Shown piece by piece: positions 8,443 through 31,825 of a stretch of DNA of 64,000 nucleotides. The notes below the pieces were generated by a model. The model searched no databases, had not been told where the DNA came from, and saw nothing but the letters and a program-made list of their open reading frames with translations. The translations under genes and the position numbers were made by a program. The stretch comes from Pseudocercospora fijiensis CIRAD86 (Eukaryota; Ascomycota; Dothideomycetes; Mycosphaerellales; Mycosphaerellaceae): NCBI RefSeq assembly GCF_000340215.1, contig NW_006921532.1:9267172-9331171 (forward strand). Direction: 5' to 3'. Each line of letters opens with the position of its first letter. Within the stretch, counting starts at the first letter, position 1.

Positions 8443-8449
8443 GGCGTAA
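8443..8449. repeat. Candidate target-site duplication, left copy
   Basis: GGCGTAA here is repeated in direct orientation at 31819-31825, just outside the right terminal repeat. A 7-base match within the short windows searched could arise by chance at a few per cent, so this is a candidate only. Confidence 0.4.
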
Positions 8450-8461
8450 TAGTGAGACAAG

Positions 8462-8494
8462 TGCGCTTGACCACGCTAAACGCGGAGTTGACCA
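8462..8494 (+). repeat. Left terminal inverted repeat
   Basis: The 33 bases match the reverse complement of 31777-31809 at 31 positions; the inner 28 bases (8467-8494) differ at one position only. The repeat contains TTGACCACGCTAAA followed by GCGGAGTTGACCA, so the heptamer TTGACCA occurs twice, 21 bp apart, like paired protein-binding sites. Related ACGCTAA/ACGCTAG motifs continue inward at 8514, 8553 and 8571, a subterminal repeat pattern seen at many transposon ends. CpA and TpG survive here, unlike in the interior. Confidence 0.9.
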
Positions 8495-8799
8495 TCGATG
8501 TGGGGATCCGTAGACGCTAAAGCGGGTACGTCCCGTACGCGAAAGTTTCATTACGCTAGGATCTTCTATTACGCTAAGCGTTACGCGATATCTATACGCG
8601 CATCTTTGCGCGTATACTCTCTTCCTTTCTTTCTATAATATACTACTAGTACGTATCCACCCCTAGCCCCTATCCCTATTCCTTTATATATACCTATATA
8701 TATACGCGACGAGCTAACAAGGCGACTTCGATGTCGTAGCTAACCGAGTTCCCCTATACTACTATACCTAAGCCTATAGCTCTGTATATACCTCCTAAC

Positions 8800-10090
8800 A
8801 TGCCGTAAGACATTAAGACCGTTGCCTAGAACAATACCCTACTAGAGCAATCTATAAGTATAGAGACTAGAGTATACATCTGCCTATACTTATGCCTATA
8901 TAGAGCTCCTACCGCAAATATAAGAAGCGCCTCTTATAGGGCGAGTTATTTAATATGCCTAAGATAGAAATCGTAGTATATAATCTCTCTTCTACCTATG
9001 TAATAGGCCAAACTAATGCCTATAGATCTACCTAAAGACTAACTAGGAGGCCGTACGCACCTATATAGGTGAGGTAACTTGTCGTATACCGGTAGGATCT
9101 AAGAACTTCGGTCGCTTCCTAGCTGCCTAGAAGAATAGCGATAGGTATATGCAGTGTTATGCCTATATTACTAGTTATTACTAACACTATAATAGAAAAG
9201 ACGAAGACGAAGAGACACTAAAGGAGTTGTACGAAGAGAAGGGCTTCTATAGTATATAACTCTGTCTTTGCCTATACGTATGCCTAAAGCTAACACCTTG
9301 TAGACTATCTACCGCGACACTTCGGCTCTCGCTATATATATTATCTATAGTGTACGTAGCTCCCTGCCTAGAGCTTTGCCTATACTAACGCATATATAGT
9401 ATAAGGGAAAAGTCGAGCAGCCTAAGGAGAAGGACCGTAGTAGTCGGTACACGCCTAAGACTAAGACAAAAAAGTGCATTAGTAGGTTTAAGCAGCTCTA
9501 TAGGCAAAGCTTTTCACTAATATGTCCCTTAGATTTCTTCGACAATGCCTAGGATCTATACGAGGTTAAGTATAGCTACATCTTTACCCTTACCTTTGCC
9601 TATACTAATCTGTATATAGCCCCGACGCCCTAGGTATACCGAGCAAGGGCAAAGCTAAGGGCAAAGCACCGGCCAAATCTGCCGAGACAATCGAAGACTT
9701 AGAGACTAAGTCTAAGTCTAAGTCTAAGAGTAATAGCGAGGTGTATATGCCGATCTATGCCTATGCCGCTAGTTATATACTGACTTAAATAGGCCCTTCG
9801 TCGTCCGGCGCGGCAAGCACGGCAAGGTATGAATAGTTACGTACATACCTTTGCCTATACTAACGCCTATATAGATTGATCTAACTAAGGCCAACCGCGA
9901 GTTCCGTGCCGAGTTCCCCGAGGCTATAGTGCCTTGCTTAGGTTGCTAGGCTAAGAAGGCCAAGAAGAGTAAGTCTAGAGCTTTGGCTATAGCAATGCCT
10001 ATACTAACGCCTATAATAGACTGCAACCTTAGTGCCGATACCTGCAACTATACTAAGAACTATAACGTCGTCATCCTTATAGGATAAGGG
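8800..10090 (+). pseudogene. Copy A of an unknown intron-rich gene, RIP-degraded
   Basis: The ATG at 8800 opens a frame that parallels copy B (from 23357). Matched pieces include MP-stop-DIK (copy B MPQDIK, CAG turned into TAA), SSYRKYKKRLL-stop-GEL (copy B SSYCKYKKRLLSGEL) and CRIPVGSKN (copy B CRIPAGAKN). The 3' end encodes FRAEFPEAIVPCLGC, a stop, AKKAKKS, and after an intron CNLSADTCNYTKNYN, giving a C-x2-C...C-x6-C pattern that could have bound zinc. At least six introns are visible, e.g. 8858-8903, with near-identical 3' ends. Stops fall at codons where CAG, CAA or TGG would have been, as RIP predicts. Function unknown. Homology to copy B begins upstream of the ATG, near 8520, so promoter sequence was duplicated too. 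It lies next to the left TIR and reads inward. Confidence 0.7.
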
Positions 10091-11829
10091 TATAGATATA
10101 GGTATAGGCACGGGCATAGGATAAACATAGGATAATCATTGCCTATATAGGCACGTATATAAGCATAGAACTAGCTACTGGTTGAAAGCCCCGGCTATAG
10201 TTAGACTTGAAATCTAACTACAGCTAAATCTTCTCCGCACTCGTAACTTCCTGTATACGCCGTGCTATAGCTATAGGTCGCCCTTTACAATATCGTAACT
10301 GCTTTCGAGGCTTCTAGAGTCTAACAAAGGTAGCTTAACTAAAAAACAAGGGGGATAACGAAAGGCTAGCGGTTATATCCTAAGAATAATATAAGCTATA
10401 CTAGTACTAATAAGTACTAACAGCTAGAAACTAACAATAATTATATATATACTAGGATTTATAGGTAGTAGAAGCTACAGTTTAGACGAATTAGTATAGA
10501 AAGTTTGAAATAATAGGGGCCATATTAGTAAAGTTACCTAGATCAAAATAATTAAAACTAGTATATAGCGGGTAGGTCCTTTTTAGTATAGATACCTAGA
10601 ATTTTATAACTGCTAGTTTTAGTCTAAAAGACATAGAGATACCGATCGATATTATACTATAGCGTTACTAGTAGGCTGGTTTTTTATATAGGACAGATGC
10701 TACTACTAGTACTATACCTATTCTCTAGTCTTTAGCTATAGCAGTAGGGCGTTATTATCCCCTACTGTTAATGGAATAAAGGTATAGTCTTTAAAAAGTA
10801 GGTTTAGGTATTCTTTTTAAGTCAGCTATATACTAGCGCTAGTACGTATCTTATAATGCCCTAAGGCCTATATACTGTTCTATCGAATACGTTATACATA
10901 TTGAATCACACAAACGTACAGAAGTAGTAGTACTCTAGTTTAATACTACCCTATTTTGATTTTTATATATATATATATATATATACTACCGTATAGGCCT
11001 ATATACCGACTAACTAATATTAAACTATATCTTAATCTCTAGCGTAGCCTAGTATCGGGTCTCGTATTACTCGGGAGATAATACGCTACTTACCCGCTTT
11101 CCGGCTAATAGTGCTATTCTATCGGGTATAGTCTACGGATCTACTAGTAACCCGCTTTTTTAGTTTAGTATACTAAGGTCGGCGAGGTATGTTTCTAACT
11201 AGTATCGAATTGCTCTAATACTATGCTATACTTTTAACGTAGCAAGCTAGATATATAGCTAATCGTATAGATATAGGTGCTTTAGCTAGGTATTACCTAC
11301 CCGCTCGCCTATACTAAATAGGACAGTATAGGCTATAACCTAGAGATAATCGGCTTTCTATACTAGTAGGCCGGGAAGGGTAATAGTACTTATATCTACT
11401 ACTTTAAAGTCGGTAGCAATCGCACTACTACTAGTGCCTATTTCGATTTTACAGGTTAGTTTAACAACAAGGATTTGCTACTCGATCGTATATATCTAGA
11501 AGACTAGTTTGTATACCTGCTATACGATCTAATTCTAGCTAATACTAAGGTCGCCGACTATATTATATTTCCGAATTGTAGTGTATTAGACTAGGACGCT
11601 AGTAAGGCTCGTGCTATTACTATAGTCCGCGGCGCAGACGAGTAGCATATCGATAGTATCTAGAGAAGCACGTTTTACTATAACCAAAATATTCAGCTAC
11701 CGCCAACTAGGCAACCCTAAGCAGTACCATAAACGTTTACTATAGTCGGCCTAAGATAGTATCATATACTATCGCAGGTTAGCGTACTAGCATTGCTATA
11801 CCCTATAGTAGGTCGGGTTAGTTTGGTTT
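10091..11829. other. RIP-degraded DNA without recognisable gene
   Basis: No open frame or family was recognised. It holds a run of alternating TA around 10964-10984 and a possible tRNA-derived relic near 10202. The text is dominated by TA, CTA and TAG, as expected for saturated RIP. Confidence 0.6.
10202..10216 (+). other. Possible tRNA-Ser(UGA) anticodon-arm relic
   Basis: TAGACTTGAAATCTA can fold as an anticodon stem-loop with the loop CTTGAAA, which is the serine UGA anticodon loop. A related arm occurs in both arms of the palindrome at 14181-14195 and 15223-15237 (reverse). Acceptor and T arms are not convincing, so this may be part of a tRNA-derived repeat or a coincidence. Confidence 0.25.
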
Positions 11830-13434
11830 AGTTTACTAAGCCAAAATTCTAGGTTAGTTTAAGTTAGTTTGCTAAGCAACTATACGAGTAGCAGGTTAGA
11901 ACTATAGAATTAGTCGGTTTCTAACAAGTATAGGAATATATACGTAACTTAAAGCAAGCCCTTTTTAAGACTAGTACTAATAGAATTTTCGAAGACTTTT
12001 ATTTCGGACGTCTAACAAAGCATAATATACTATATATATACTTAGAGAGTATTTATCGCGCGCTATATAGCGCCGTATAATAGCGGCATATTTTGTATAT
12101 AGAAACGCTTATAGAGGATACTAAGAATATCTATCCTACTAGAATATCTATCCTACCTACTACTATCTCGAATTTAGATATTCTAACCCTTAAGAATCTA
12201 ATCTAGGGCTTTAAAATCCTTACCTATAGTCGTAACGCGATTCACGTAGATAGCTATAAGGACAATAGCTAAAATAGTATTAGTATGGTTCCAAAAGAGG
12301 TAGTAAAATTTAGTAGGAAATTCTATCTAGATATCTTCCGCAGTTACTACTTTAATAGTAATAATACTACTATATATAGTCTAACTATCTAGTATAAAGA
12401 CCCGGCTAGAGGTACTAGCTACAGTAATCTTATAAGTAACCTAACTCTATTACTAGGAAATATAATAAATATCTATACTACGGTAGGCTATACTAAATAA
12501 GTTAGCTATTTAGTAGGAATAGGCCTACTACCGTCTCTATATACCGGCTCCGAGTGCCGACTATGCCTCTAGATTTAACTCCCCCCTATCTCGAAGGCTA
12601 AGGTACCGAGTGGAACCCCTATACCTTATGTCTGCTCGGTTGTCGCGGAGCGCTTATAAGTAAGATATTAAAAAAGTATATAAAATATACGAGAAGAGCA
12701 TCCTAGGATATAGGTCGTTAGTAAATAATAGTAGTACGCCTAGTTATTTATATAGTACGTTACTCTAAACGACTATGAGCCTATATTATCTCGTACTTCG
12801 CTTATAAGACTATATTATATACGACCGGGTAAGTATAGTAGGGAGGTAGAGGTAGTATCTTAGGACGAGGCTTCTATATATCTTAGAATCTCTTATACGG
12901 GCTATACGTTCTTCTTCGTTAGACTCGTAGGTAGAGTCGTCGCTAGACTCTACTAACTTGTGCTATCGATCTCCTCCCTAGTTATCCTAGCTATACGAGT
13001 AGCGGTAAGCGATAATACCTAGATCGAATAACGATCTCTCCCCTTCTTTAGTTATATATACTTCTACTTCTTAGTATAGTTAAACTACGAATACTATTAA
13101 GGCAAGCCGGGATATGGCAAGAAACTAGTCTAAATATAGCTCGTCTCTATAATAATCGAGTAAACATAAGGCGCTAGGTTTCTACTTCGTACCTTATATC
13201 TAGGTATAACGCGGGAATGAAACTAGGAGTATAGCCGGTATATATAGCTAGTAAAAGGATGCGAAAGTGTGCCTCGTCCTAGGTTAATGTAGCGGCTAAA
13301 TACAAATCCTAATTAATCCGCTATAAACCGACGCCGAATCTTAGCTAGAAGCTATATATTTTTATATTAAAGAGCAACCCGCTTCGTATAGATAGTAAGG
13401 AGGTTAGAAAGCTTAAACTCGGTTATAAGAAATA

Positions 13435-14127
13435 TCTAGGGTTGCGTTGGTCTACTTTACCCCTCGCCTACGTTCGGGGATTTGAACTATACGTAAAGTC
13501 GCACTTTCTTAGTAGGCTATACGTAAAAGTCGACGATAGCACTATTATAGAGTAAATATAATAGGAAACTGGATATAAGTGCGATAAGAGATGAGAAACA
13601 GTAGATTTCCGCTATATTAGTAGCTAGTAAATTGCGACTAAGGACCTTAATCCGGCCTCTTAGCAAAACTCTAGTCTACTATATAATCGATTACTTTATA
13701 TATCGGCCTATATATCTATTATGTAATCTACTACCCTCTCCGCCCTCTCTACCTTAGTTAACCGCTTAGTACGTACCCTCTTTATATTTTCGCCCTTTTT
13801 ACGCCCTATACCGAGTTTTCTATACTCTTTGTATACTAGAAAGAAAGAATACGAAGAATACGCGCCTTAGAATAAGGTAGACTAGCTTGCTAAGGATTAT
13901 ATAAGAAAACGGCGGTAGTAAAGTCTATAGCTATAATATACTCGGATAAGGCTATATATATAATATTTAGACTCGCGGTTCCTTACTATACCTACCTAGA
14001 TATCCGAATAGGACTAGAATATACGATTATATCGAGGTTTACGTATAGCCTACTAAGAAAGTGCGATTCTATATATAGTTGAAATCCCCGCGACTACGGG
14101 ATAAAGTATAACTAACGAAACCCCGGA
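13435..14127. mobile_element. 693-bp TIR element (MITE-like) inserted in the left palindrome arm
   Basis: The element is absent from the opposite arm, which gives the empty site: arm sequence AAATGCCTCCGTAGC (reverse complement of about 15276-15290) is interrupted here. Its ends are inverted repeats of about 55 bp: left starts TCTAGGGTTGCGTTGG, right (reverse complement) starts TCCGGGGTTTCGTTAG, and both reach a shared GGGGATTT-AACTATA block. Differences between the two ends include RIP-type transitions. The flanks fit a TA target duplication (13433-13434 and 14128-14129), as in Tc1/mariner-type elements, although a 4-bp reading (ATGC mutated to ATAT and ATAC) is equally compatible. No transposase frame is seen, so it is probably non-autonomous. 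Confidence 0.75.
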
Positions 14128-16374
14128 TACCTTCGTAGCTTTCGAGAGATTACTAATCGCTATAGCCGTAAATTATATACTAGACTTAAAATCTAATATA
14201 ATTACTTAGACGAGTCGCTAGAAGGGAGTTATAGAGATTAAAAGCTCGGTCTACCTTTTATCTTAGAATAGCCGGATCTCGCGAAGGGTAATAGTATCCG
14301 GTCTAAGGCGCCGCTTTTTTATCGTCTAAACCTACCTTTTACCCTTTTTTATAGAAGAATAGCTTTTCTTCGTAATAGTCTTCGTCTGTCTACCTTTTTA
14401 GCTACTCTATCCTTCTTATATCTACCTAAAGTATTCTTATTTCGTAGTACTGTTTTCCGAGTAGCCCCCTTCCCTTATATATACTATATATAGTATTCCT
14501 CTTCCGATATTTCGTTCTCGCTACGGTCTTCCTATACTTAGCTTACTTTACTCGTACTCTATTCTAAGTTCTAAAGGTATCTTTATATACGTTCGGGCGA
14601 CGAAGGTATATCGCTAAGACCTAGAAAAATTAATAAGCCTATAAATGTAAAGAGATATTTATACTTCTGATACTCTAGACTAAATAGTCTTCTATTAAAC
14701 CGTCCTAGTCGGTTATCGTTAGATTCGTAATTAGGATAGTCCGTATCCTTACTAGGAAGTGTTATAGAATATCTCTTTACGATTATAGGCTTATTAATTT
14801 TCTAGGTTCTAGCGATATACCTTCGTCGTCTAAGCGCATATAAAGATACCTTTAGAGCCTAAAGGGCAAGGGTAAAGCAAGCTAAGTATAGGGAGACCGT
14901 AGCGAGAACGAGATATCGGAAGAGTAAGACTCTCCGTAGTATATATAAGGGAAGGGGGTTCCTCGGAAAACAGTACTAAAAAAACAAGAAGGCCTTAGAT
15001 AGATAAGAGAAGGCTAAAAGGAGCAGGCACACGAAGACTATCGTAAAGAAAAGTTATTCTTCTATTAAAAAAAGGGTATAAGGTAGGACTCGACAATAAA
15101 GAAGTAGTACTTTAAACTAGGTACTATTACCCTTCGCTAGATCCGGCTATTCTAAGACAAAAGAGGGACCGAGTTTTTAATCCCTAAGACTCTCTTCTAG
15201 CGACTCGTCCGAGAAATCATATTAGATTTTTAGTCTAGTATACGATTTACGGCTAAGGCGATTAATGCTCTTTAGGAAGCTACGGAGGCATTTCTTATAA
15301 CCGAATTTAAGCTTTATAACCTCCTTGCTATTTATACGAAGCGGGGTACTCTTTAATATAAAGATATATAGCTTCTGGCTGAAATTCGGCGTCGGTTTGT
15401 AGCGGATTAGTTAGACTTTGTATTTAGTCGTTAGATTAACCTAGGAGGAGGCCTATTTTCGCATCCTTTTACTAGCTATATATACCGGCTATACTCCTAG
15501 TTTTATTCCCGCGTTATACCTAGATATAAGGTACGAAGTAGAAACCTAGCGCCCTATATTTACTCGGCTATTATAGAGACGAGCTATATTTAAATTGGTT
15601 TCTTCGTATATCGCGACCGAGTAGATAGTTAGCGAAAGGGCGATAGAACGTTTATAATACGTCTCTATTTAGACCTAAAATACAAAGGTCCTAAGGAGCC
15701 CTAATATACTAACTATAAAGAGATTCTTTAGTATTAGCACTTTAATCCTCTATACTACGAGGCAGATAGTAAGCCTACGAGAGAGAAATTTTAATAAGAG
15801 ATTCTCTATAATACGTAGCGCTATTATATAGCGACAGATACGTACTAAGTCCGGCAACTCGAAGAAGAATTAAGATAGCGACTAAGGAAGATTTAAGAGA
15901 TCGATAGTATACTAGTAGAGTCGAGGTCTTATAAGCGAAGTACGAGATAATATAGGCTCTAGGTCGTATAGAGTAACGTACTATATAAATAACTAGGCGT
16001 GCGACTCTTATTTACTTACGACCTATATCCTAGGATACTCTTCTTATACTTTTTATACTCTTTTCTAATACCTTACCTATAAGCGCTCCGCGATAACCGA
16101 TTAAATATAAGCTATAGGGTTTCCGCTCGGTACCTTAGCCTCCGAGATAGGGCGGAGTTAAATTTAGAGCGATAGCCGGCACTCGTAGCCGGCATACAGA
16201 GATGGTGGTAGGCCTTTTCCTACTAAATAACTAGCTTGTTTAGTATAGCCTACCTAACATTTCTTATATTTCCTAGTAATAGGCCTAGGTTATTTATAAG
16301 ATTACTGTAGCTAGTAAGGGAATTACTAAAGAATATCTATACTATAGTAGGATACTATTATTACGCCGAGTGTT

Positions 16375-17215
16375 TGTTAAAAGGAGGCTTTTGCCTATTA
16401 CTATACCGGCTATATATACCGGGTATATTTCAAAGTTTGCCGCACCTGCCTTTTTTAGCCGTATCTAACTTCTTTTCTTGCTCTAACGTTACTATAATAT
16501 AGGCTTGCGCGACGCTTACTCTATTACCTAGCGATACCGCGATACTACCTCTCTCGCTATATTTAACCTTCGTATCGATACCTATATCTCTACGCTCTAT
16601 ATCCACTACCTCCGTACTAATATCCTCGCTCCGCGCGCGCCTTCGTATACCTTCGTAACGTACTTTCTTTATTAATTCGACGACTTTTGTAATACCGAGT
16701 CTACTTAACTAAGTTATAACGACTCGTACGAAGGGACCTACTACTTCTACGGATTATAATAAGACCGGAAGTAGTAGAACGAGTATAGTATATTAACGCA
16801 AGAAGGCTACTACTACTACCGCCAGCTCTAGCACTAGAAAGAGCGTCGCGAGTAAGGCTCCGCGTAAGACGACGGCAGATAAGGCTCTAGGCAAGACGAC
16901 GACTAGCGCTTCTACTACTAGTAGCAATAATCGTACGAAGCGTCGATAGCGCCTAGGAAGTAAGTCCTATCTATAGCCGGTAGCGTAGCCGGTAGCGTAG
17001 CCGGCATTCTTACTATTCTTTTACTAATCCTTCTTTAGCCGTAGCCCTTCGTTAGATTCGGATATATTAGAAGGATACTAAACTCCTAATCCGTAAAGCT
17101 CCTTTATAACGACTTATTCGTAAAATTGCCTAGTATATTATATAGGACCTTCGCTTCTAAGCCTCTATAATAGATACCCTTTAAGAGGCTTTAGAAGCCT
17201 ACCTTATTTGTATCT
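16375..17215. mobile_element. Insertion of about 0.8 kb in the right palindrome arm
   Basis: Left-arm positions 12290-12405 and 12430 are nearly adjacent, but their partners in the right arm are about 0.8 kb further apart, so this stretch is extra. It contains a Lys/Ala/Thr-rich open stretch at about 16800-16950 (SVASKAPRKTTADKALGKTT) that looks like the basic tail of a coding region, followed by a 12-bp GCCGGC repeat at 16975-17007. Exact ends are uncertain because the left arm is diverged here. Confidence 0.5.
16975..17007. repeat. 12-bp AGCGTAGCCGGT tandem repeat (first site)
   Basis: About 2.7 copies of a unit containing the palindrome GCCGGC. The same motif, reverse-complemented, recurs at 17621-17670 and 18425-18444, at or near insertion boundaries in the right palindrome arm. 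The unit contains no CpA or TpG in either strand, so RIP cannot erode it. Confidence 0.8.
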
Positions 17216-17499
17216 ACGAATATATATTTCTCTTCTACCTCTTTTCGAACTATACTAATACTATTTTAGCTATTGTCCTTATAGCTATCTACGCGAAGCG
17301 TATTACGATTATAGATAAGATTTTAAAGCCCTCAATTAGATTCTAAAAGGCTAGAATGTCTATATTCGAAATAGTACTACTAGGTAGGATAGATATTATA
17401 GTAGGAAGAATGTTCTTAGTGTTATCTATAATCGTTTTCTATATACGAAATAAGCCGCTGTTATACGGCGCTATATACCGCGCTCTAAATACTCCCTAA

Positions 17500-17547
<48 letters not shown>

Positions 17548-17609
17548 TAGTATAGTATACTTTATTAGCCGTACGGAATAGAAGTCGTTAAAAATCCCGT
17601 TAGTACTAA

Positions 17610-18455
17610 GGAGTAAAAACGCCGGCTACGCTACCGGCTACGCTAATAGCTACGCTACTAGGTCTTTTAAAGAACTAGAAGAAGATAGATATTTTAGTTA
17701 ATTTGTATTAGTTTATATTTTTATAAAAATAAAATAGGGAAAAAGAAGGAAGGTTAAAGAGCCTAATACTTATAGTTATAGGCATTATCCCTGTTTTCTA
17801 GACTATATTATATACCTGCCTTCGCAACTCTATCCAATACTTACTCTAAATATCCTTATACTCTACCTACTAGAAATTTAACTAGATACCTAGACCTATA
17901 GCTGCCTCTATATCTTTTACTATCTTCTATAGGTTAAAGGACTCCTCTATAGCAGCCTCTATATCCTTATATAATACGAAGTTACTACCTACCCTACCCT
18001 TTATATCTACTAAATAACTAAGAGTTCTAAGGAACGAACTAGCATTCGGCCTTAGTATAGCGAGTAACTAGTAGAACGTAGTATAGAGCTATTTTATAGC
18101 TCTTTTATATACTATACCGATACCGAGGGAAGAGCTATCCTATTACTTAATATTAGAGAATAGTTTAGTAGGAAAGTGTTAGAACTTCTTAAAGAGGGCT
18201 TCTAGGGAAATCGATAAGTTCTACCTAGATATAGATAATAATATTCTACCGAGTAGTTAGGGAATCAAATAGCGAGCGAAAGGATAAAATTTATACCTAA
18301 TAAGTGTAGTTTCTAAACTAACCTATAATAGCTTGTATATATATATGCTCTTAATTAGTTAGTGCCCTTAGCTAATTATCTATAGATTTAGGGTTATATA
18401 AGTACCTTCCTATAACTAAAAAATGCCGGCTACGCTGCCGGCTATACTCTCGTGT
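17610..18455. mobile_element. Insertion of about 846 bp in the right palindrome arm
   Basis: The arm sequence TAGTACTA directly followed by a GTCTTAAAAAGGG-like sequence (as in the left arm near 11961-11980) is split here: TAGTACTA ends at 17609 and GTCTTATAAAGGG resumes at about 18454. The insert starts and ends with GCCGGCTACGCT-type repeats (17621-17670 and 18425-18444) in the same orientation, rather than clear inverted ends. Its interior is RIP-degraded and shows no gene that I recognise. Confidence 0.55.
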
Positions 18456-18610
18456 CTTATAAAGGGCTTGCTTCGAGTTACGTATACATTCTTACACTTC
18501 TTAGAAACCGATAAATTCTATAGTTCGAACTAGCTACTCCTACAGTTGCTTAGCAAACTAACCTAAACCAAACTAGATCTTTAGCTTAGCAAACTAAACT
18601 AAACTAAACT

Positions 18611-21600: not shown

Positions 21601-23049
21601 ATTATCAGTTAAAACCGTCGGTATTATATATAATTATTATTAATATATTGTCTTCTAGACGCGGTAAGGTATAATAGTACCCGCTAAATTCGGATTTACG
21701 TATTTCGAGGTATAGTTGTTGCTTATTATTATAGTATCGTAGTATTATCGTTAGTCTTACTAGTATACGTTAGAATTCTCGGTTAGTCCTGTAGAGTATC
21801 TATACTAATAGTTGCCTATATAGCGATAGCACAATAAGGAACCTAGATATACTCTAAATTACCTTACTCCCTATACTTTATACTGTGAGAATTCGAATAG
21901 TATTAACAAAGGCCTACTATAGGCGGAAGAGAGGGTTCTAAGAGGGGATTCTTCCCCCTAGTATAGCGCTAGGACTTGTTACTAGAATACAGACACCCTT
22001 ATTAACCTAGTATAATATACTATTCCTATATTATTCTAATAGAGGTGCTATTATAGTGCGCTATATACTATAGTATAAATTATAAGTAGACTCTTCTAAC
22101 TACTAAGTATAGCTATATATACTACGATAGGTTATACTACCTATAGAACCTTATACTATTATAGCTAATAGTAGTAGTAGTAGTAGTAGGAGTATTAGCC
22201 TCCGCTTAGTACTACCTACTAGAAATCTAATTTACTAGTAACATTTAATTTGCTATATAGGCCTCTAACCGTATACTAATTATATAGGTTAACCTACTAT
22301 TTGTCGAGATATAGTTAATACTATAAGGAGCTATAACTAGCTAGCAATAGTTAATACCTAAATAGTAACTACTCGCCTATCGGATTAAGTATATACGTTA
22401 TATTCGCGTTAGACTTTGCGATACTCGTTAAATATTATTATAAATCTAAGCGTTTATAGAGGCAAAATATGTAGCTAGAACTAGGCAATAGTTCAGATTA
22501 ATATACTATTAGTCGAGGTATAGCTCAATTTAATTTACTATATAGTATTATATTTAGTCTAGTAGCTATTAATATACTAGGTATCTATCTTAGATCTTAG
22601 GTAGATAAAATATTTAGAAGGTTATAATTGTAACTCTTAAGCCTATAGGTAGCCTATATAGACTAGAATAGTCCTTAGGTTGCCTTGTATTCTCCTATAT
22701 AGAAACCCTTTTTCTTCGGGCCTAGAGGCTAGTAGATAAAGCTTAGGTCCCTTCGTATTAGAATACTAGTTATACTCCTAGTGCTTATTTAATAGGTTTT
22801 AAGTTACTATCTATAAGATACTACTAGTATTCCTATAAAGTCGTCTAGTAATATGCTAGCTCTACGTTCTTTAGTACTCCTAATAGTATAAGGTTTTATT
22901 CTATTTTTATAATAGACTATTACTAGTATATATTAGTAGGATAACGAGTCGAAGGCTAATTACAAGCATACGAAGATATACCTAGTATATTAGTTTAAGT
23001 ATTATATATAACGAGATTATAGTAGAGTACTCTATTAGGGTCGAATAAG
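18611..23049. other. RIP-degraded DNA without recognisable gene
   Basis: More than 4 kb of TA-, CTA- and TAG-rich sequence. No frame or family could be read. It includes a two-copy ~165-bp tandem duplication (listed separately) and an AGT microsatellite near 22170-22190. It probably contains degraded transposons, since RIP acts on duplicated DNA, but none can be named. Confidence 0.55.
21051..21370. repeat. Two tandem copies of a ~165-bp unit
   Basis: 21051-21200 and 21216-21370 share the order GATCGAAGACGTACCTCGA / GGTCGAGAACGTATCTCGA, GCGAATCTAACGC / GACGAATCTAACGC, GGCGGTCTC / GGCGGTCTC and GAACCGCG / GAACCGCG. The copies are diverged mainly by C-T and G-A changes, consistent with RIP after duplication. 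Confidence 0.75.
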
Positions 23050-24960
23050 ACATACTAAGTATATGCGCAGACACATGGCTATACGTTTGCGTATATCGGA
23101 TCGGGAGACCGGCAATCCCGGATACGAAGATTCTATTATGCTAGGATTATATATCACGCTAAGTAAGGATATGATATCTTTGCGCTTTTCTATACGCTCG
23201 AACCCTCTTCTTCTTTCTCCACTACAAACTACTCGTACGTATTAGACCCAGAGCCCTCTATATATACCTATGCGCATTCCTGATCCGCTTAGTACTAGAC
23301 TCAATTCTAGTGTTTATATATACATCCGCACAAAGCTATACGCATAGCAGTCGACTATGCCGCAGGACATTAAGGGCTGCGTATTCCCGAGCTCGCTCGT
23401 CAACGGTAGCGTAAGTACATTCCTATAGCTATACGTCGCTATATACTAATACGCAAACAGAGCAGCTACTGCAAGTACAAAAAGCGTCTGCTTAGTGGCG
23501 AGCTAGTCCCTCTACTAATTCTAGATATCGTCGTAAGCATTCTTCTGCCCTTACCTATCTACATACTTATATATACAGACATGCCTAAAGAAGAAAGTGC
23601 CCGCTGTTCGCCTTTTTATAGGTAAGGTCGTTTGTCGTATACCGGCTGGTGCTAAAAACTAGAGTCGATTTATCGACGCTACGGAGGATAACGGGTATAG
23701 TTATACTATTGCGCATATCTATATATAGCACTAATCTCTATAGTAATAAGAGTTTGGAGGATATATACGACGAGGAGGGTATATATTATATATAACCTAG
23801 CCTTCGCGCATACCTATATATTCTACTAATACTTACGTAGATAATATGCCGCGATATAAGAACACTCGCGACGCATATTTAGTACGGGGTATATATTGTC
23901 CCCGAATAGATCTGCTTATACTTATGCCTTTATAGTATAGCGGCGTCGTCGAAGAGGGACGTAAGGAAGATAGCAAGCGGGATACCGGCGGTCGCTATAC
24001 CCCGGAAGACAAGTTAAAGCGCTATATAGATATAGCTATGCCTATACATTTGCCTATTAATTCCTATTAACGAGCCTTAGAATTCTACGACCGCCTCTAG
24101 GAGATATACGAGGACGAGGCGCGAGAGTATACGTAAGTCTACGATTATAGATATACGCATTCTAATACCTATCTAGCAAGGGTCCCTCTAAGGCGACCTC
24201 GAAGAAGGCCGATATAGGTAGCGACGAGACTAGCGACGAGGGTAGCGACGAGACTAGCGACGAGGCTAGCGACGCGGCTAGCGACTAGACTAAGAACGAG
24301 GCTAAGAGCGAAGCCAAGAACGAGGCTAAAAGCAAGGCTAAGAACGAGGCTAAAAACAAGGCTAAGAACGAGGCGAAAAGCAAGGCTACCGATATAGCTA
24401 CCGACAAGCCCTCTACTAAAGGTCCTAAGAACCCGACCGTAGTTATTAAGTCGTCTACGGAGGACGAGGACGAGGACGAGGGAAATAGATTCTAGGTCTA
24501 AGCAAGGGTATATACTTAGATATAGTTATAGAGACTCGTCGCCGCTAATATATATAGCAAATTCGAGCTTATACTTGCCTCGAAGTCTAGCAGGGTAAGC
24601 ATAAGGCTAGCCTTATCTATACTTATACTAATGCGCGTAGGTCAATAGGACGCTTACAAACAACGACTTCAAAAGGCGCTTCCCTAATATAGCCGTACCC
24701 TATAATACTTATAAGGCCGCCGGTGCGAAGACGAGTATACCTATCTATCCGTTTTAGTCTATTAGTATACTAACGGATGTATAGACTGCAAATGGGGTAA
24801 CTATACCTGCGAGAATATAAAGGTATACGTACTCTAATCTATAGCTATACCTACGCGTATAGACAAGAGTACCGTAGGGCTCGCACTAGGGAGAGGGATT
24901 CGTTAGGGAATTAGATAGCTATACGCATACAACCGGTTATAGCTATAGCTCGCGCGTTGA
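23050..24960 (+). pseudogene. Copy B of the unknown intron-rich gene, less degraded
   Basis: Homologous to copy A, including sequence upstream of the ATG (TTACGCTAGG in A, TTATGCTAGG in B). From the ATG at 23357 it reads MPQDIKGCVFPSSLVNGS, intron 23411-23460, SSYCKYKKRLLSGELVPLL, a second intron, then FIGKVVCRIPAGAKN and RFIDATEDNGYSYTI. Later parts encode YSGVVEEGRKEDSKR, LEFYDRLQEIYEDE, a long Lys/Glu/Ala/Ser acidic-basic repeat (24190-24490), NDFKRRFPNIAVPYNTYKAA and, after a last intron at the same place as in A, DCKWGNYTCENIK. Several stops remain, so it is probably not functional. Its function is unknown; a charged, possibly nucleic-acid-associated protein is inference. Copy B keeps more CpA/TpG than copy A and so reveals the pre-RIP sequence better. 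Confidence 0.7.
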
Positions 24961-25489
24961 TTTGGCTTTGCGCTAGCTAATGTTTGGCTTAGCGGCGGTA
25001 AGAGTATATAGATTGACATCCTATAGCGTTTAGTATATAGTGATTTATGTATAAACCTATACGCCGACCTATACGCATAGCGAAGTTTATACCACTGCTT
25101 ATAGTACAGCTCGTATATAGAGGCATAGCTAACGTTATACCATTTTCCGCAACTTCTTTAATCGCTAAGACGTACTTTAGCTAGCGTCGACCGAGCTAGC
25201 GGCGGGCAGCGGGAGTTTTATATATACGGCTATCGCTATACTTATACGTCTAGCTATAGCTCTGTTTACTCGATACCCTCTCGAACGACGCGATAGCAGG
25301 CAGCTAGGATATATTAGCATAACTATAGACATATCTACGCCTATAACTCTGCTTACCTAGCGGACGGCTATTGCCGGGGCGTCAGCCCCTTTACCGAACG
25401 AACAGAAGGAGCGCTATATATTTAGCTAATGTCTCGCGTATATCTACGCATAAATAATGCTCTAGATCTGCGTATCTTTGCTATTTCTT
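24961..25489. other. AT-rich spacer between copy B and the satellite
   Basis: No gene recognised. The sequence repeats CTATAGCTATA-like words and GCATA steps. It may include the 3' flank of copy B. Confidence 0.5.
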
Positions 25490-27560
25490 TAATATACAAA
25501 GTATATAGTTTAAGTTATATTCCTATATAGTAGAATACCCTATGCTATTTTTTATTAATTCCTATTTATATATATTAATAATACTCTATACTATTATAAT
25601 TTGCGTTGTTACTATCTCTCTCTCTCTCTAAATTTTCTCGTTATATATATATTAATAGAAATATAATCTCTACTACTATTATTCTAGTTACTGCCCCTCT
25701 CCTAGTATACGAATGTCTTTAGGTATACGCAAAGGCAACACTGTAGCTATGCATCCGTTCCTCCGTTTTAGTAATAAAGGCTTAGTATTATTTTATATTA
25801 GTATAAGACTATTACGCTAGTGTAATATAAAGTAAATAGTTTAACTTGTTTACCTATATAGTAGAAGACCCTATATATATATAGCTAAAAAGATCTTTTT
25901 ATTTTTCTTTAGATTTATACTTATTAATAATACTCTATACTATTACAATTTGCGTTGTTACTATATCTCTCTCCCTCTAAATTTTCTCGTTATATATATC
26001 AATAGAAATATAATCTCTACTACTATTATTCTAGTTACTGCCCCTCTCTTAGTATACAGATGCCTTTGAGTATGCGCAAAGGCAACGCTGTAGCTATGCA
26101 TCCGTTCCTCCGTTTTAGTAATATAATTATTATAGTTAAAGCTTAGTTTTGTCCTACTTTATTATCCCTTTACGCATACCTATGCACTAGCGATTAGGCA
26201 CTCCCTATTCTATGCGAGACACAACATAGGTATGCACATATCTCACGCTATAGATATGCGCCCCTTCTCCCGTTTTAGTAATAAAGGCTTAGTATTATTT
26301 TATATTAGTATAAGATTATTACGCTAGTGTAATATAAAGTAAATAGTTTAACTTGTTTACCTATACAGCAGAAGACCCTATATATATATAGCTAAAAAGA
26401 TCTTTTTATTTTTCTTTAGATTTATACTTATTAATAATACTCTATACTATTACAATTTGCGTTGTTACTATATCTCTCTCCCTCTAAATTTTCTCGTTAT
26501 ATATATTAATAGAAATATAATCTCTACTACTATTATTCTAGTTACTGCCCCTCTCTTAGCATACAGATGCCTTCGGGTATGCGCAAAGGCAACGCTGTAG
26601 CTATGCATCCGTTCCTCCGTTTTAGTAATATAATTATTATAGTTAAAGCTTAGTTTTGTCCTACTTTATTATCCCTTTACGCATACCTATGCACTAGCGA
26701 TTAGGCACTCCCTATTCTATGCGAGACACAACATAGGTATGCCCATATCTCACGCTATAGATATGCGCCCCTTCTTCCGTTTTAGTAATAAAGGCTTAGT
26801 ATTATTTTATATTAGTATAAGATTATTACGCTAGTGTAATATAAAGTAAATAGTTTAACTTGTTTGCCTATATAGTAGAAGACCCTATATATATATAGCT
26901 AAAAAGATCTTTTTATTTTTTTAGATCTATACTTATTAATAATACTCTATAGCTATTATATTTTATCTATTATATTTTATGTTATTACGATATCGCTCTC
27001 TCTCTAAATTTTCTCGTTATATATATATTAATAGAGATATTATCTCTAATATAATTATTATAGTTAAAGCTTAGTTTTGTCCTACTTTATTATCCCTTTA
27101 CGTATTATTCTATATAAGACACTACATAGGTATGCACATATCTCACGCTCTAGATATGCGTCTGTTCTTCCGTTTTAGTAATAAAGGCTTAGTATTATTT
27201 TATATTAGTATAAGATTATTACGCTAGTGTAATATAAAGTAAATAGTTTAACTTGTTTGCCTATATAGTAGAAGGCCCTATATATATATAGCTAAAAAGA
27301 TCTTTTTATTTTTTTAGATCTATACTTATTAATAATACTCTATAGCTATTACATTTTACGTTATTACGATATCGCTCTCTCTCTAAATTTTCTCGTTATA
27401 TATTAATACAAATATTACTTATCTCTACTACTATTATTCTAGTTACTACCTCTATTCTGTATACGGCTGCGTATAGGTATGCGCATACCTTACGCTTTAG
27501 GCATGCGCCTACATTTCCTTTTAGTAATAAAGGCTTAATATTATTTCAATATTAGGGTAA
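25490..27560. repeat. Satellite array, ~507-bp unit, about four copies
   Basis: The marker GGCTTAGTATTATTTTATAT recurs with its CTTAGT at 25781, 26288, 26795 and 27188, and a decayed form lies at 27534. Spacings are 507, 507, 393 and 346 bp; a partial unit precedes the first. Units at 25781 and 26288 are almost identical, while later ones have deletions. Each contains the perfect palindrome AAAAAGATCTTTTT and GCATACCTATGC-type motifs. CpA and TpG are frequent (nine in 26041-26100), unlike the surrounding island. So the array was probably amplified after RIP had stopped acting. Confidence 0.88.
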
Positions 27561-27871
27561 TTTTAGCCTAGTTTATCTACCCTTTAAACATACCTATGCG
27601 CTTACGATAAGGCTCTCCCTCGAGTTATGCCTATACATATATGCTCGACTATGTCTATATACGTAATATATGCTAAAAAGATGTTAATACAACCTATATA
27701 TATAGCTATCTCCGACCCTCTCTTAACTAGCGAGCTATCTCGTCGTATACCCGTAGCTGCGCCCGTAGATACTCCGCCTATAAACTAGTTGCCGCCGGCA
27801 GCAAGCGTCACAACATGGCCAAGGTCTACTGTGGCTTCTACGACTATGGCGCGGATAGCATCCTATTAGGG

Positions 27872-28135
27872 GCTGCATTGGCTGTCCTATCGGTGGCTGT
27901 ATTGGCTGTCCTATCGGTGGCTGCATTAGCTGTCCTATTAGGGGCTGTATTGGCTGTCCTATCGGTAGCTGCATTGGCTATCCTATCGGTGGCTGCATTG
28001 GCTGTCCTATCGGTGGCTGCATTAGCTGTCCTATCGGTAGCTGTATTAGCTGTCCTATCGGTAGCTACATTAGCTGTCCTATTGGTAGCTGTATTAGCGG
28101 CATTGTTAGTAGCTGTATTAGCTGTCCAATTATCG
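27872..28135. repeat. 24-bp minisatellite, 11 copies
   Basis: Eleven consecutive 24-bp units of the form GCTGCATTGGCTGTCCTATC plus GGTG. The units stay in frame, so both strands are open: plus reads an AVLSVAAL repeat (27815-28150), minus a PIGQPMQP repeat (27735-27974). Most differences between units are GCA/GTA, TTG/TTA or GTG/GTA, that is CpA to TpA or TpG to TpA. I do not call either frame a gene. Confidence 0.92.
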
Positions 28136-28599
28136 GCTAGTTATAGCTAGGGATAATTCGGGTTTGATCTTGAAGTTGAATCCCGTCTCGAGACATATCT
28201 ATAGGCGTACCTATAGGCGTTCCAATGCGGCTAGGTCCTAATGTAGCGGTGTTAGTAACTAATCTCTGGTTTCCCCTTTCTCTAGGCGTAGGAACGCGTA
28301 AAGGTAGAGGCATACTTTCTGTGCTCGCTCGCTTTCGTCGCCGGCTAGTAACCTCTAGTTTAGGATCCCGGATAGGGATTATATATAGGCGAATCCCGGG
28401 TAGTAGGCTTAGGCGTTGTAACGGTCGTAGGGCGGGCGTAGGGCTTAGACTTCCGGTTAGGCGTTATAACGGTCGTAGATGTAGCGGTAGGCCAGGCTCG
28501 ATATCCCGTAATTGTGAACGTGTTTCCTATTCTAAAAGGGTCCTCCGGGTAGGAATTGTTCTAACCTGAGCTCTAGCGGCGCGATACGCATTATTGACC
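28136..28599. other. Spacer with an uncertain open frame
   Basis: An open frame on the plus strand at 28225-28569 gives an Arg/Gly-rich product caused by a repeated GGCGTTGTAACGGTCGTAG-type motif (near 28412 and 28462). No family is recognised and I do not call a gene. Confidence 0.4.
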
Positions 28600-31050
28600 C
28601 TAGTAGTACGCTTATCCTCACTATTACTCCTATGCTTATAGAGATTACTAGAGGCCTGCTCTTAGTACGCTAGCCTTATAGCCTTTTCCTGTTTATATCT
28701 AGTCTTCTTTACAACTACGGCTATTAGTACGGGCATAAATCTGCTAATAGGTAGCTCTTACCTTGCTTCTGTAGTGCCCTCTCGTATCTAGACTAGATAG
28801 AGACATTTACTAACGTATGCTTTACGCGGTAGTCGGTCCAACCCTAGAACTAATCGACATCGCGTATATCTATAGTCGCAGCTCTAGAAATACCTATTAT
28901 TAAAGGTAGGTCGGTTCCGAATAAGTATAACTTATATCCCGTCTGTTCGTTAGCATTTATATCCGCCCGTCTGCTTCTGTATATATCCTTGTTTATAAGC
29001 GTACACTCGGGGTTGAGCGCGGCTACAATAACATCGTTTTTCTTGTTCGTCGCCTAGTTACGGAGATCTTTGTTCCGGGACCCTGCATACATTAGCGAAT
29101 GTCTATAGCTATATATATAGACGTACGTTAGAGGATACCGATAATCGTATAGTACTCCTACCTGCTCGGAGCGTCGATAAGGGATAGTATATCTTCTCGC
29201 TCTTTTATAGTAACCCTACTACGCTATTTGCTTATAACCTTGTCTACGTTCCTAATAAAGTGTACACGACAGAGCATAAGTACATGCTATAGGTAATACT
29301 TAGCTGTATAGAGGGGGTCGATTTCGTACAGGTAGAGACTAAGGCCTATAGGTTAGCATAGGTACGGGCATAGGCTAGGGCATAGATACTAGTATATTAG
29401 CACCCGAGCTAATCGACTGCGACATAGTGCTACCCGTCCGTATCCCCGTAGATATGTGCCTACCTACATCTGCCTACACCTACGACAGCCGCTAAGGTCG
29501 TAAATAGGCGCTTCTATACGAGATAATATATCCGATTAGTATTCTTCTCGTTGCAGATAACCCGAGCCAAGGTGAAGACTATCTTATTAGCAGGTATATA
29601 GCTATAGGTTAGCCTATATATACGCTTTCTATTCTGACCTAACTCAACCGCAAAGATAACCTCGTTTATATTAGATCCTGCGATACGTTTGTAGGATATA
29701 TCGACGTCGAATGACTAGAGAGACGTAAAGATCTCTGCTTGTTCCCTATAAAAGCATACCACTATCTATATACCTATAGGGGAGATATATACGTCTTAGA
29801 TGTATTGCTACTAAATCAGCGTATATCAGCATCTATAGCTATAGATAAGGACGTACAGTCTTCGGGTTGAGTTTCTGCTGTTTGTATACCTATTCTACTA
29901 CGTTAATATCGCGAAGGTGACTATACTCCGTATACTTGAGCTTTACTATTATCGCGGTTAAGCGCGAAGTATTGTTTAAAGCAACATAGAGCTTAGCAAG
30001 TAATAGTACCCCTTTTTTATTAAGGAACTGCTGCAATATCGGATAGACCTAGAATCGGGCTAAGGACTACGTAAGCGGAAGTCTATAGGTATAGCTATAT
30101 ATATACCCGTTGTTAGGTCCGGCGAAATGCACTTCTTAATCAATTCCTTTAGCTCTTCCTCGATAAGAGTAGGGACTTTCGTCGGAGGGGGTAGTATATG
30201 CGTATATTTGCCCCGAGATACGATTATTATATAGGGCGTCCTTATAGGATCGCGCGGGACGATGAAATCGAACTTGACCTTACACTCTTACGTAACGAGC
30301 TTGCCCTACCCTTATAGGTAATCGACTTCTACGCGGTGTTAGCTAATCTATACCTATAGGTCTAGACGTACCTACGGTATATCGTATAAACTACCTTTGT
30401 CGGCTTAACAACTATACAAACGTTAGTCGGACCTGCTAGTAGATTTTAGAAGAAGTCCTTAAGTATATCGATTAACTATTTCCCTTCTTTTAGAATAACT
30501 TAGCGGAAGCATAATAGTCGTAGGTGTATATAGTAGTTAGTATATACGAGTGAGTACTGGTAATAACTAGCCAGCGTCTATACAGTTAGCTATAGATATG
30601 CCTATATATATAACTAATTACTTATAGGCGTCTCTGCCTCCTCGTGCGTTAAACTACAATCTTCGCGTTGATCGTCGTAGGCTTTTCTCGACCGGAATCT
30701 TGCTTGTACTATATGCCAAAGCCTATGCCCGTAGGTTAGTACTCGGTAAACTATCTAACTACGGATATATATACGCATGTAAGTTCTCTACCCGGTATTA
30801 CGTCTCTTCTCCTCTTAGTACGAATATCCTTACGAGCGGAGGTATAGAATTAACCCTCTAGTTTAGGTACTCGTCTGTAAGGCGATAGTGCGTAGCGCCC
30901 TCCCGGAGATATAAGCAAGCATATTAACATATCTTAACACCGCTACAATTCTTCCGTACCCGAATACAGGATACGCTATTGAAGTACGACGCTTTAGTTT
31001 CCTTCGGGGAATAGGGCTGCCTTGCCCTATATTGCATCTAATATATATTA
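28600..31050 (-). pseudogene. Degraded MULE-like (Mutator-type) transposase gene
   Basis: Read on the minus strand from about 31000 to 28800 there are two conserved-looking pieces. Near 30990-30800: YFNSVSCIRVRKNCSGVKIC, then a YRLTDEYLN segment, which resembles the N-terminal zinc-binding part of fungal MULE-like proteins. Near 29760-29530: CFYREQAEIFTSL, a stop, SFDVDISYKRIAGSNINEVI, FAVELGQNRKRIYRLTYSYI and PANKIVFTLARVICNEKN. The order FDVD-SYKR-NEVIF-ARV is typical of the MULE transposase core as I know it. Stop codons are TAG/TAA where CAG, CAA or TGG are expected. One intron at 29346-29389 (44 nt) ends in CTAACCTATAG. The gene reads inward from the right TIR. The family call is recollection from short motifs only. 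Confidence 0.45.
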
Positions 31051-31776
31051 GTATATATATAACAATATATACGCCTATATATACTCTATATTTAAGAACG
31101 GCCGGAATCTTTATAACGTTCTCTAGGATGAGATCGGTATAGTTATAGTAATCCGCAAGTAGAACGACATATATATAGCTATAGTTATAACTACTTAGGT
31201 ATTCTAGTATCGTAGCAATATATTCGATATGCTTAATAGAAAGCGGGGCATATATAGTATTTGTAATAAGGGTAGGCCCGGGTCGAGGAAGTAGCTAAGT
31301 CTTGTTAGAAAGTATAGGCATACTATTAGCTATAGCTAAGCCTACAATATTGCTTTCTAGCTACTTATCTTCTACAGCCTCTAAGGCGATGCGATCTTCT
31401 TCCGCAAGCATTCCTAACGTAAAGACATTAGAGGCCTATATCTCGGTAAGCTAAAGGGTATATATATCTATATACTTATATATACGCGCTCGTTAATAGA
31501 CTCGGTATACGAGATGAGCTTATTAGAATATTTATATTTATAATCTTCCTATATATAGGGAAGAAAGGTCAATAGAGTCTCTATAGCTTTAGTCGGTACT
31601 TTAGATAGTAGTTTTGTTCGGTGCTCGTAATCTGTATAGTCTAAGAAGCGGGCATTCGTATAGTAGAAGGAAAGGGAAGGGAAAGAATTAGTCGATTAGT
31701 AGGAAAGTAGATGCGTAGGCGCTAATTTGCGGCTAACCATATACACGGTTACGCACAGACTCGGCTATACGGACGT

Positions 31777-31809
31777 TGGTCAACTCCGCTTTTAGCGTGG
31801 TCAACCGCA
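31777..31809 (-). repeat. Right terminal inverted repeat
   Basis: Reverse complement of the left terminal repeat at 8462-8494, with 31 of 33 positions matching (27 of 28 in the inner part). The sequence changes within a few tens of bases from TA-rich island text to ordinary coding-flank composition, so the repeat marks the boundary itself. Confidence 0.9.
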
Positions 31810-31818
31810 GATTTCTCT

Positions 31819-31825
31819 GGCGTAA
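31819..31825. repeat. Candidate target-site duplication, right copy
   Basis: GGCGTAA, the direct repeat of 8443-8449. If correct, the element spans 8450-31818 and its outer terminal-repeat bases (8450-8461 and 31810-31818) are diverged, though they still share a GAGA-AA pattern. Confidence 0.4.

What the first reader, a model, noticed from the sequence alone, without database searches (positions are those of the whole stretch)
8450..31818. A 23.4-kb RIP-dead island is a single element with matching inverted ends
The inner terminal repeats (8467-8494 and 31777-31804) are identical at 27 of 28 positions in inverted orientation and lie exactly where composition changes on both sides. Each carries TTGACCA twice, 21 bp apart, and left subterminal copies of ACGCTAA follow. 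A direct GGCGTAA lies outside both. The island is therefore best seen as one giant transposon of undescribed type, and not merely an AT-rich patch. Its cargo includes a duplicated unknown gene and a MULE-like transposase remnant.
Basis: partly seen in the sequence, partly recalled or inferred. Interest (0 to 1): 0.88.

Follow-up and report, generated by a model that had tools for sequence, protein, structure and literature searches.

The report
Giant RIP-mutated DNA transposon family
The AT-rich island is one copy of a 23-kb cut-and-paste transposon present about a dozen times in the genome of a banana-pathogen fungus, and its cargo, including a piece of a host RNA-silencing gene, seems to have been destroyed by the fungus's mutation defence before the element multiplied.

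Summary
Window 8452-31819 is one copy of a 23.4-kb unit with inverted ends. Its two ends pair at 12 places in the same genome (23-88 kb apart; long pairs hold nested insertions), and this copy matches six others read in depth at 95-98% over the main blocks. Nine of 11 scorable pairs are flanked by 8-9 bp duplications, against none of 110 mismatched controls. So it is a DNA transposon family, not a patch.

The genome is Pseudocercospora fijiensis. Cargo: histone-H3 pieces akin to the published H3 repeat, and a 1.8-kb fragment of the host's own Argonaute gene. In five copies, 224 of 247 RIP-type sites of that fragment are mutated in all and only 4 differ. The 12-kb core was therefore RIP-dead before the family multiplied, and more RIP followed. 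Spread in trans is the simplest reading.

A Mutator-type mechanism fits the 8-9 bp duplications, the mostly unmutated insertion sites and a candidate transposase frame at 28.2-30.9 kb. That frame rests on my eye alone: Pfam, protein and structure searches gave no support. Pfam found no Starship captain. No empty site could be tested.

The parts
8452..31819 (.). giant transposon copy E1 (23,368 bp)
   Evidence: boundaries from comparison of 12 left and 12 right ends, one right end truncated; six other copies 95-98% alike over the main blocks
8444..8451 (+). left flanking duplication GCGTAATA
   Evidence: 6 of 8 against 31820-31827
31820..31827 (+). right flanking duplication GCGTAAGT
8452..8495 (+). 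left terminal inverted repeat
   Evidence: 36 of 44 positions match the right end; pattern scans
31776..31819 (-). right terminal inverted repeat
10450..22450 (.). core that was RIP-saturated before amplification (edges approximate; the right edge is blurred to about 23.0 kb)
   Evidence: CpA/TpG in any of 5 copies 1.8-4.3% per 1-kb window against 5.3-10.3% in the outer windows and 14.7% in unmutated flanks
10955..11798 (+). segment shared with another high-copy RIP'd repeat family
   Evidence: 28 non-family places at 79-82% identity, 40 of 86 candidates scored
11811..14659 (+). left arm of imperfect palindrome, homologous to H3-bearing repeats
   Evidence: the repeat finder I1-I17; 71-85% to L053 and L055
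14768..18614 (-). right arm of the palindrome
   Evidence: 87-89% to L053 and L055 over two pieces
14131..14373 (-). histone-H3-like fragment
   Evidence: Pfam PF00125 E 0.0022, below cut-off
15084..15386 (+). histone-H3-like fragment
   Evidence: PF00125 E 1.1e-13
17041..17217 (+). histone-H3-like fragment
   Evidence: PF00125 E 4.8e-6
18888..20727 (-). RIP'd fragment of the host Argonaute gene MYCFIDRAFT_133529 (codons about 266-877 of 1016)
24195..24386 (+). 12-bp tandem array
25494..27426 (+). tandem repeats of about 507 and 393 bp
27813..28154 (+). 24-bp tandem array
28150..30917 (-). candidate transposase reading frame (C..C..HxH finger-like stretch near 30290-30190, first-D-like motif near 29710)
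   Evidence: read by eye; no database support; this part found only in the family

Best explanation
The island is one copy of a giant terminal-inverted-repeat DNA transposon that moves by cut-and-paste: a DDE-type transposase, most likely of the Mutator kind, binds the 44-bp ends (paired TTGACCA boxes), cuts the element out and inserts it at a staggered cut of 8-9 bp, mostly in DNA without RIP. The unit grew by taking in pieces of other repeats (H3-bearing sequence now in a palindrome, another high-copy repeat) and a fragment of the host Argonaute gene. Shown: the family, its ends, the target-site duplications, the Argonaute fragment, and that the core of five copies shares its RIP mutations, which must therefore predate their separation. 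Inferred: cut-and-paste, the transposase type, and that the multiplying copy was already dead and was moved in trans. RIP then struck the copies again.
For: Left end 17 hits and right end 14 hits, pairing at 12 places in inverted orientation. Duplications of at least 7 of 8 bases in 9 of 11 scorable pairs, 0 of 110 mismatched controls; four are 9 bp and exact, two 8 bp and exact, three 7 of 8. Copies differ by 194-278 transitions but 0-10 transversions over about 6.7 kb of end sequence in 21 pairs of 7 copies, so the spread looks recent. Argonaute fragment: 1,802 aligned sites, 77.6% identity to the host gene, 314 of 404 differences C>T or G>A, 225 of 260 host CpA/TpG sites changed, 94.0% identity without C>T/G>A. 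In 5 copies 224 of 247 such sites are mutated in all, 19 in none, 4 differ (independent RIP at these rates would give about 160 and 0.001). Context has a mild effect (unmutated: 16 of 107 at ACA/GCA, 3 of 140 at CCA/TCA) but does not separate the classes. In the candidate transposase frame 35 of 54 stop columns are shared by all 6 copies counted (E4 was left out because its aligned stretch ended 2 bp short and fell out of frame). Flanks of E1-E8 lack the RIP signature in 15 of 16 cases. A 31-bp solo right end at C2:1679645 lies between perfect 8-bp duplications GCTTCATT, as a deletion or excision remnant would. Published Mutator insertion sites in this fungus are 7-9 bp (PMC3562529, passages).
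Against: No transposase domain was detected in the island by Pfam in six frames, in copy E6's two outer parts, in mid-window 20740-25450 or in six copies of the candidate frame. The homolog search with that frame gave none, its fold is uninformative (pLDDT 34), and its 3-base periodicity is weak (z 2.3 against 4.1 for the Argonaute fragment; the test is itself weak, since an open reading frame in the window's flank gave only 1.0). No second family with the same ends that could supply transposase was found (up to 2 mismatches). In the outer shell the shared mutations could partly reflect RIP hot spots, so death of the transposase gene before the burst is likely, not proven. This copy (6 of 8) and E4 (4 of 8) have poor duplications. 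The RIP-order test uses 5 of 12 paired copies. The empty site is untested.
Confidence: 0.62

Rival explanations
1. The element was autonomous and intact when it spread; RIP then hit every copy to saturation independently.
For: RIP is strong in this genome; the outer shell kept many sites that differ between copies (221 polymorphic CpA/TpA-type sites in 3,368 bp at the right).
Against: In the core's Argonaute fragment 224 of 247 sites are mutated in all five copies, 19 in none and 4 differ; context has only a mild effect; the same copies show intermediate states in the shell, so RIP in them was not all-or-none.
Confidence: 0.15
2. It is a giant hAT transposon, an overgrown relative of the published 9.5-kb H3-carrying hAT.
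For: H3-bearing sequence shared at 87-89% (right arm) with two loci of the high-copy H3 repeats; five of the nine good duplications are 8 bp; the right end CAGAG fits the hAT end consensus (recalled).
Against: Four of 11 duplications are 9 bp and exact, hAT being strictly 8 (recalled); none of 22 DUF659 places lies in a paired interval; the left end begins GTGAG; the shared H3 part sits in the core, not at the ends.
Confidence: 0.12
3. It is a degenerate Starship moved by a tyrosine recombinase.
For: Size and fungal host.
Against: No DUF3435 match in six-frame Pfam scans of E1; duplications are 8-9 bp and differ from copy to copy; inverted repeats at both ends.
Confidence: 0.02
4. Segmental duplications of one heterochromatic block, not transposition.
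For: Copies are nearly identical apart from transitions.
Against: Common ends at 12 unrelated sites and matching duplications in 9 of 11; flanks differ.
Confidence: 0.02

Closest known systems
Mutator-like elements (MULEs) and Pack-MULEs
   Same: 8-9 bp duplications, inverted ends, insertion mostly in unmutated DNA, a captured host gene fragment, single-end remnants
   Different: 23 kb, far longer than the Pack-MULEs I recall; core RIP-dead before amplification; no MULE domain detectable in the unit
H3-carrying hAT of P. fijiensis (PMC6710886; abstract, Results and first part of the Discussion read)
   Same: same species; H3-bearing sequence shared at 87-89% with two loci of the high-copy H3 repeats here; RIP; gene capture
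   Different: reported as 9.5 kb with 471 H3-bearing elements, 8-bp duplications and 20-bp ends, and the text does not contain the word Argonaute; the present family has 12 pairs, 8-9 bp duplications and 44-bp ends
Starship giant transposons of fungi
   Same: giant cargo-bearing elements of filamentous ascomycetes
   Different: no DUF3435 captain found; 8-9 bp duplications; inverted ends

Membership tests
Mutator-like elements | target-site duplication of about 8-11 bp, mostly 9 | tested here: met
   8-9 bp in 9 of 11 pairs, 0 of 110 controls
Mutator-like elements | long terminal inverted repeats | tested here: inconclusive
   44-bp imperfect repeats, 36 of 44 identical; shorter than the classical Mu ends I recall
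Mutator-like elements | MULE transposase (PF10551) inside the element | tested here: inconclusive
   no match in E1 nor in any paired interval except the nested insert of E12 (150 of 247 candidates scored); RIP weakens the test; candidate frame by eye only
Pack-type gene capture | fragment of a host gene inside the ends | tested here: met
   Argonaute fragment 94.0% identical to the host gene without C>T/G>A
hAT | 8-bp target-site duplication without exception | tested here: not met
   4 of 11 are 9 bp and exact
hAT | hAT transposase (DUF659) | tested here: not met
   none of 22 genome matches lies in a paired interval; RIP weakens the test
Starship | DUF3435 tyrosine recombinase as first gene | tested here: not met
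   absent from six-frame Pfam scans of E1 and of the outer parts of E6; RIP weakens the test
Starship | horizontal mobility, empty sites in strains | not testable with these tools
   no related fungal genome held

The most novel reading that the evidence does not exclude
A giant fungal transposon that keeps multiplying after RIP has killed its whole cargo, because only its ends matter and the transposase comes from elsewhere. It ferries dead copies of host defence and chromatin genes (Argonaute, histone H3) whose transcripts, including a 6.8-kb palindrome able to form double-stranded RNA, could feed back on the host's RNA silencing.
Probability: 0.12. Interest if true: 0.8.

Novelty: new variant of a known kind. 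Interest (0 to 1): 0.58.

Why it matters
RIP is usually taken as the end of a repeat's career. Here the core of a 23-kb element was RIP-saturated before at least five of its near-identical copies separated. This indicates that RIP-dead DNA can still be amplified, and the residual CpA map makes the order of events readable. It also adds a giant family without Starship features, with host gene capture, to a fungus whose genome expansion is ascribed mainly to LTR elements (PMC13041039, passages).

Tried and rejected
Rejected: host-gene donors at C11:1563249, C5:2602607 and C2:3424288; on fetching, the matching stretches are themselves AT-rich and RIP-like. Rejected: the idea that histone H3 plus Argonaute marks one new giant-element class genome-wide. 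The H3 copies fit the published hAT family, and the other Piwi pieces belong to different repeats. Rejected: a functional Argonaute in the element; it is truncated at both ends. Dead ends: homolog search with the candidate transposase frame gave none of 7,976 candidates; structure prediction uninformative; PDB profile search best E 0.44; weak Pfam hits BH4, GDH_ACT2, Smr, EF1G and Fuseless in RIP'd frames (BH4, GDH_ACT2, Smr and EF1G below their cut-offs), all taken as chance. The Argonaute region in the two other minus frames gave no PDB match. An H3-like read-through found 374 H3 proteins, none close (62% identity at best among the 120 listed). No tree of the copies was built. No empty site could be sought. 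Copies E7, E8 and E10-E12 were read only at or near their ends; E2 and E3 contain withheld stretches, so the RIP-order test uses 5 of 12 paired copies. The resemblance of the candidate frame to fungal Mutator transposases with a WRKY-GCM1-type finger is recalled, from no call.
Full report
What was checked. Searching the ends in the window's own genome (73.9 Mb, 30 contigs) gave 17 left-end and 14 right-end hits (the tool calls such counts lower bounds). They pair in inverted orientation at 12 places: C1:9275623 (this one, E1), C9:2159187 (E2), C2:946681 (E3), C9:3880424 (E4), C10:2793213 (E5), C7:1067116 (E6), C2:2009676 (E7), C1:8996181 (E8), C7:2016014 (E9), C1:6868509 (E10), C1:10500354 (E11) and C6:855623 (E12). 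The spans are about 23.2 to 87.5 kb. One of the 24 ends (right end of E10) lacks its last bases. Two further pattern scans agree: 32 sites of the 28-bp core, by my count 22 at paired ends, control 0; 29 sites of the outer motif, 23 at paired ends and 6 solo, control 0.

Copies. Seven copies were read through (E1 and six fetched; E2 and E3 have withheld stretches of 13.8 and 8.7 kb). E1 aligns with each over the unit outside those stretches at 95-98% in the main blocks. A left segment of 3.3 kb is found in all 12, at 95-97% (E1 itself apart) in ten and 90% in E11. Length differences have plain causes. E6 holds a 7.1-kb nested insert with a 5-bp overlap at its edges. E12 holds a 14.4-kb insert that duplicates 9-10 bp of the element's own left end and contains a MULE domain. 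E11 is split near its left end and again in its right part, E10 near its right end.

Target-site duplications. With the element read as GTGAGACAAG...TTTCTCTG, 9 of 11 scorable pairs have flanks matching at 7 of 8 bases or better. Four are exact 9-mers, two exact 8-mers, three 8-mers with one difference, and two of these three differences are RIP-type. None of 110 wrong pairings does so (best 6 of 9). E1 scores 6 of 8 and E4 4 of 8; E10 could not be scored. A 31-bp solo right end at C2:1679645 lies between two perfect GCTTCATT copies, as a footprint or internal deletion would; two solo left ends show no clear duplication. Of E1-E8, 15 of 16 flanks carry no RIP signature (E4's right flank does); E9 lies in RIP'd DNA; E10-E12 were read over 200 bp at the left, where E11 is borderline.

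Species. The Argonaute gene fetched from C3 encodes P0001, MYCFIDRAFT_133529 of Pseudocercospora fijiensis CIRAD86, at 1016 of 1016 residues outside two gaps that look like introns. The contig lengths differ by 5.3 kb (6,652,381 here, 6,657,679 listed for P0001), so the assembly version may differ. The genome also has 772 H3 candidates, 150 of them scored, close to the 784 H3-like copies reported for this fungus in PMC6710886 (abstract, Results and the first part of the Discussion read).

Contents. The centre, 11811-18614, is an imperfect palindrome with H3-like fragments at 14131-14373, 15084-15386 and 17041-17217 (the first is below Pfam's cut-off). Its right arm is 87-89% and its left arm 71-85% like two loci of the high-copy H3 repeats (L053, L055); a third locus, L054, matches in pieces at 64-90%. 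That these loci belong to the published hAT is inferred from the H3 and the copy number, not from a transposase seen in them. On the minus strand at 18888-20727 lies a copy of the host Argonaute gene covering codons about 266-877 of 1016, cut off at both ends. Of 1,802 aligned sites 77.6% are identical; 314 of 404 differences are C>T or G>A; 225 of 260 host CpA/TpG sites are changed; without C>T/G>A the identity is 94.0%. Piwi matches lie inside 8 of the 12 paired intervals; of the other four, E2 and E3 have withheld stretches, and E8 and E12 gave no match. The right part (28150-31700) has no match in the genome outside this family (17 of 17 candidates scored, all in the family).

Order of events. 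At the 247 scorable host CpA/TpG sites of the Argonaute fragment, five copies (E1, E4, E5, E6, E9) share the mutated state at 224 and the unmutated state at 19, and differ at 4. Independent RIP at the observed rates would give about 160 and 0.001. Context matters a little (unmutated: 16 of 107 at ACA/GCA, 3 of 140 at CCA/TCA) but mutated sites prevail in all four classes of the preceding base. Along the element, in 1-kb windows, CpA or TpG survives in at least one copy at 1.8-4.3% of positions from about 10.4 to 22.4 kb and at 5.3-10.3% outside it, against 14.7% in the unmutated flanks; finer windows put the right edge anywhere between 22.4 and 23.0 kb. So the core was saturated with RIP before these copies separated. 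The outer shell was less so, although its shared TpA excess (12-14% against 3.1% in the flanks) says that it too had been hit. After the spread RIP acted again: 194-278 transitions but 0-10 transversions separate the 21 pairs over about 6.7 kb of end sequence.

Transposase. Pfam found none in E1 in six frames with stops as X, in the outer parts of E6 or in the middle of the window. A genome search with the MULE model (150 of 247 candidates scored) hit no paired interval except E12's nested insert; two hits lie just outside copies, at C1:10497177 and C9:3906597. By eye, the minus strand from about 30.9 to 28.2 kb holds one frame with a C..C..HxH finger-like stretch and a first-aspartate-like motif that I recall from fungal Mutator transposases. 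This is a lead, not a test: the homolog search gave none of 7,976 candidates, Pfam on six copies gave only chance-level hits (Fuseless 0.022 in three, EF1G 0.16 in two), the profile has no good PDB match, the fold is poor, and the periodicity is weak (z 2.3, while the frame's tail at 28150-28700 reaches 5.7 and an open reading frame in the flank only 1.0). Thirty-five of 54 stop columns of that frame are common to all six copies counted (E4 left out for frame). This suggests, without proof, that the gene was dead before the burst and that the family was moved in trans. No other family bearing these ends was found at up to 2 mismatches.

What is known. For P. fijiensis, PMC3562529 (passages seen) reports five complete Mutator elements and insertion sites of 7-9 bp for them; I could not tell whether any of the five is this family. 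PMC6710886 reports the H3-carrying hAT and does not contain the word Argonaute. PMC4981457 and PMC13041039 (passages seen) contain neither Argonaute nor Mutator nor MULE. Searches for giant transposons with histone or Argonaute cargo (15 of 37 listed), P. fijiensis repeats with H3 (15 of 103 and 10 of 14), Pack-MULE capture in fungi (12 of 53) and giant DNA transposons in ascomycetes (12 of 43) show, by title and start of abstract, no description of this family; the library holds open-licence papers only.

Verdict. A real giant DNA transposon family, unnamed as far as these searches go, working most like a Mutator element; membership is not proven because the transposase could not be shown. 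What makes it interesting is the order: RIP death of the core first, multiplication afterwards.

Noticed in passing
G000 genome, 35 of 64 Piwi matches (e.g. C1:6187598, C15:661556): A separate high-copy RIP'd repeat family carries a different Piwi fragment (profile about 230-300); several copies lie about 1-2 kb from the segment that window 10955-11798 shares with 28 places.
   Followed up: partly
C13:638801, C27:83386, C23:143445, C17:17287, C25:37493, C1:86068, C1:99302: A third group of RIP'd Piwi copies, several on high-numbered contigs or near the start of a contig.
   Followed up: no
C3:5764311, C10:1735320, C6:3481650, C1:1445457, C5:2131805, C5:3038058: Six Piwi loci with open or nearly open frames, many for an ascomycete as I recall.
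   Followed up: no
C1:5993469-5993563 (L062), C6:1360127-1360229 (L048), C8:1072781-1073007: Short inverted pairs (first two, read) and a four-fold tandem array (C8, not read) of the 28-bp end core; the two pairs lack the outer 14 bp of the element's ends. Origin unknown.
   Followed up: partly
C6:841165-855623: 14.4-kb nested insertion in copy E12 that duplicates 9-10 bp of the element's own left end and contains a MULE domain at C6:842914.
   Followed up: partly
C6:3885143, C8:3649423, C12:971763, C6:1731838, C1:7706021: Element ends without a partner; the last two were not read. C4:4782254 holds a left part without its outer 24 bp.
   Followed up: partly
window 16320-17235: About 0.9 kb present only in the right palindrome arm holds the H3-like piece at 17041-17217 and shows 3-base periodicity.
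   Followed up: no
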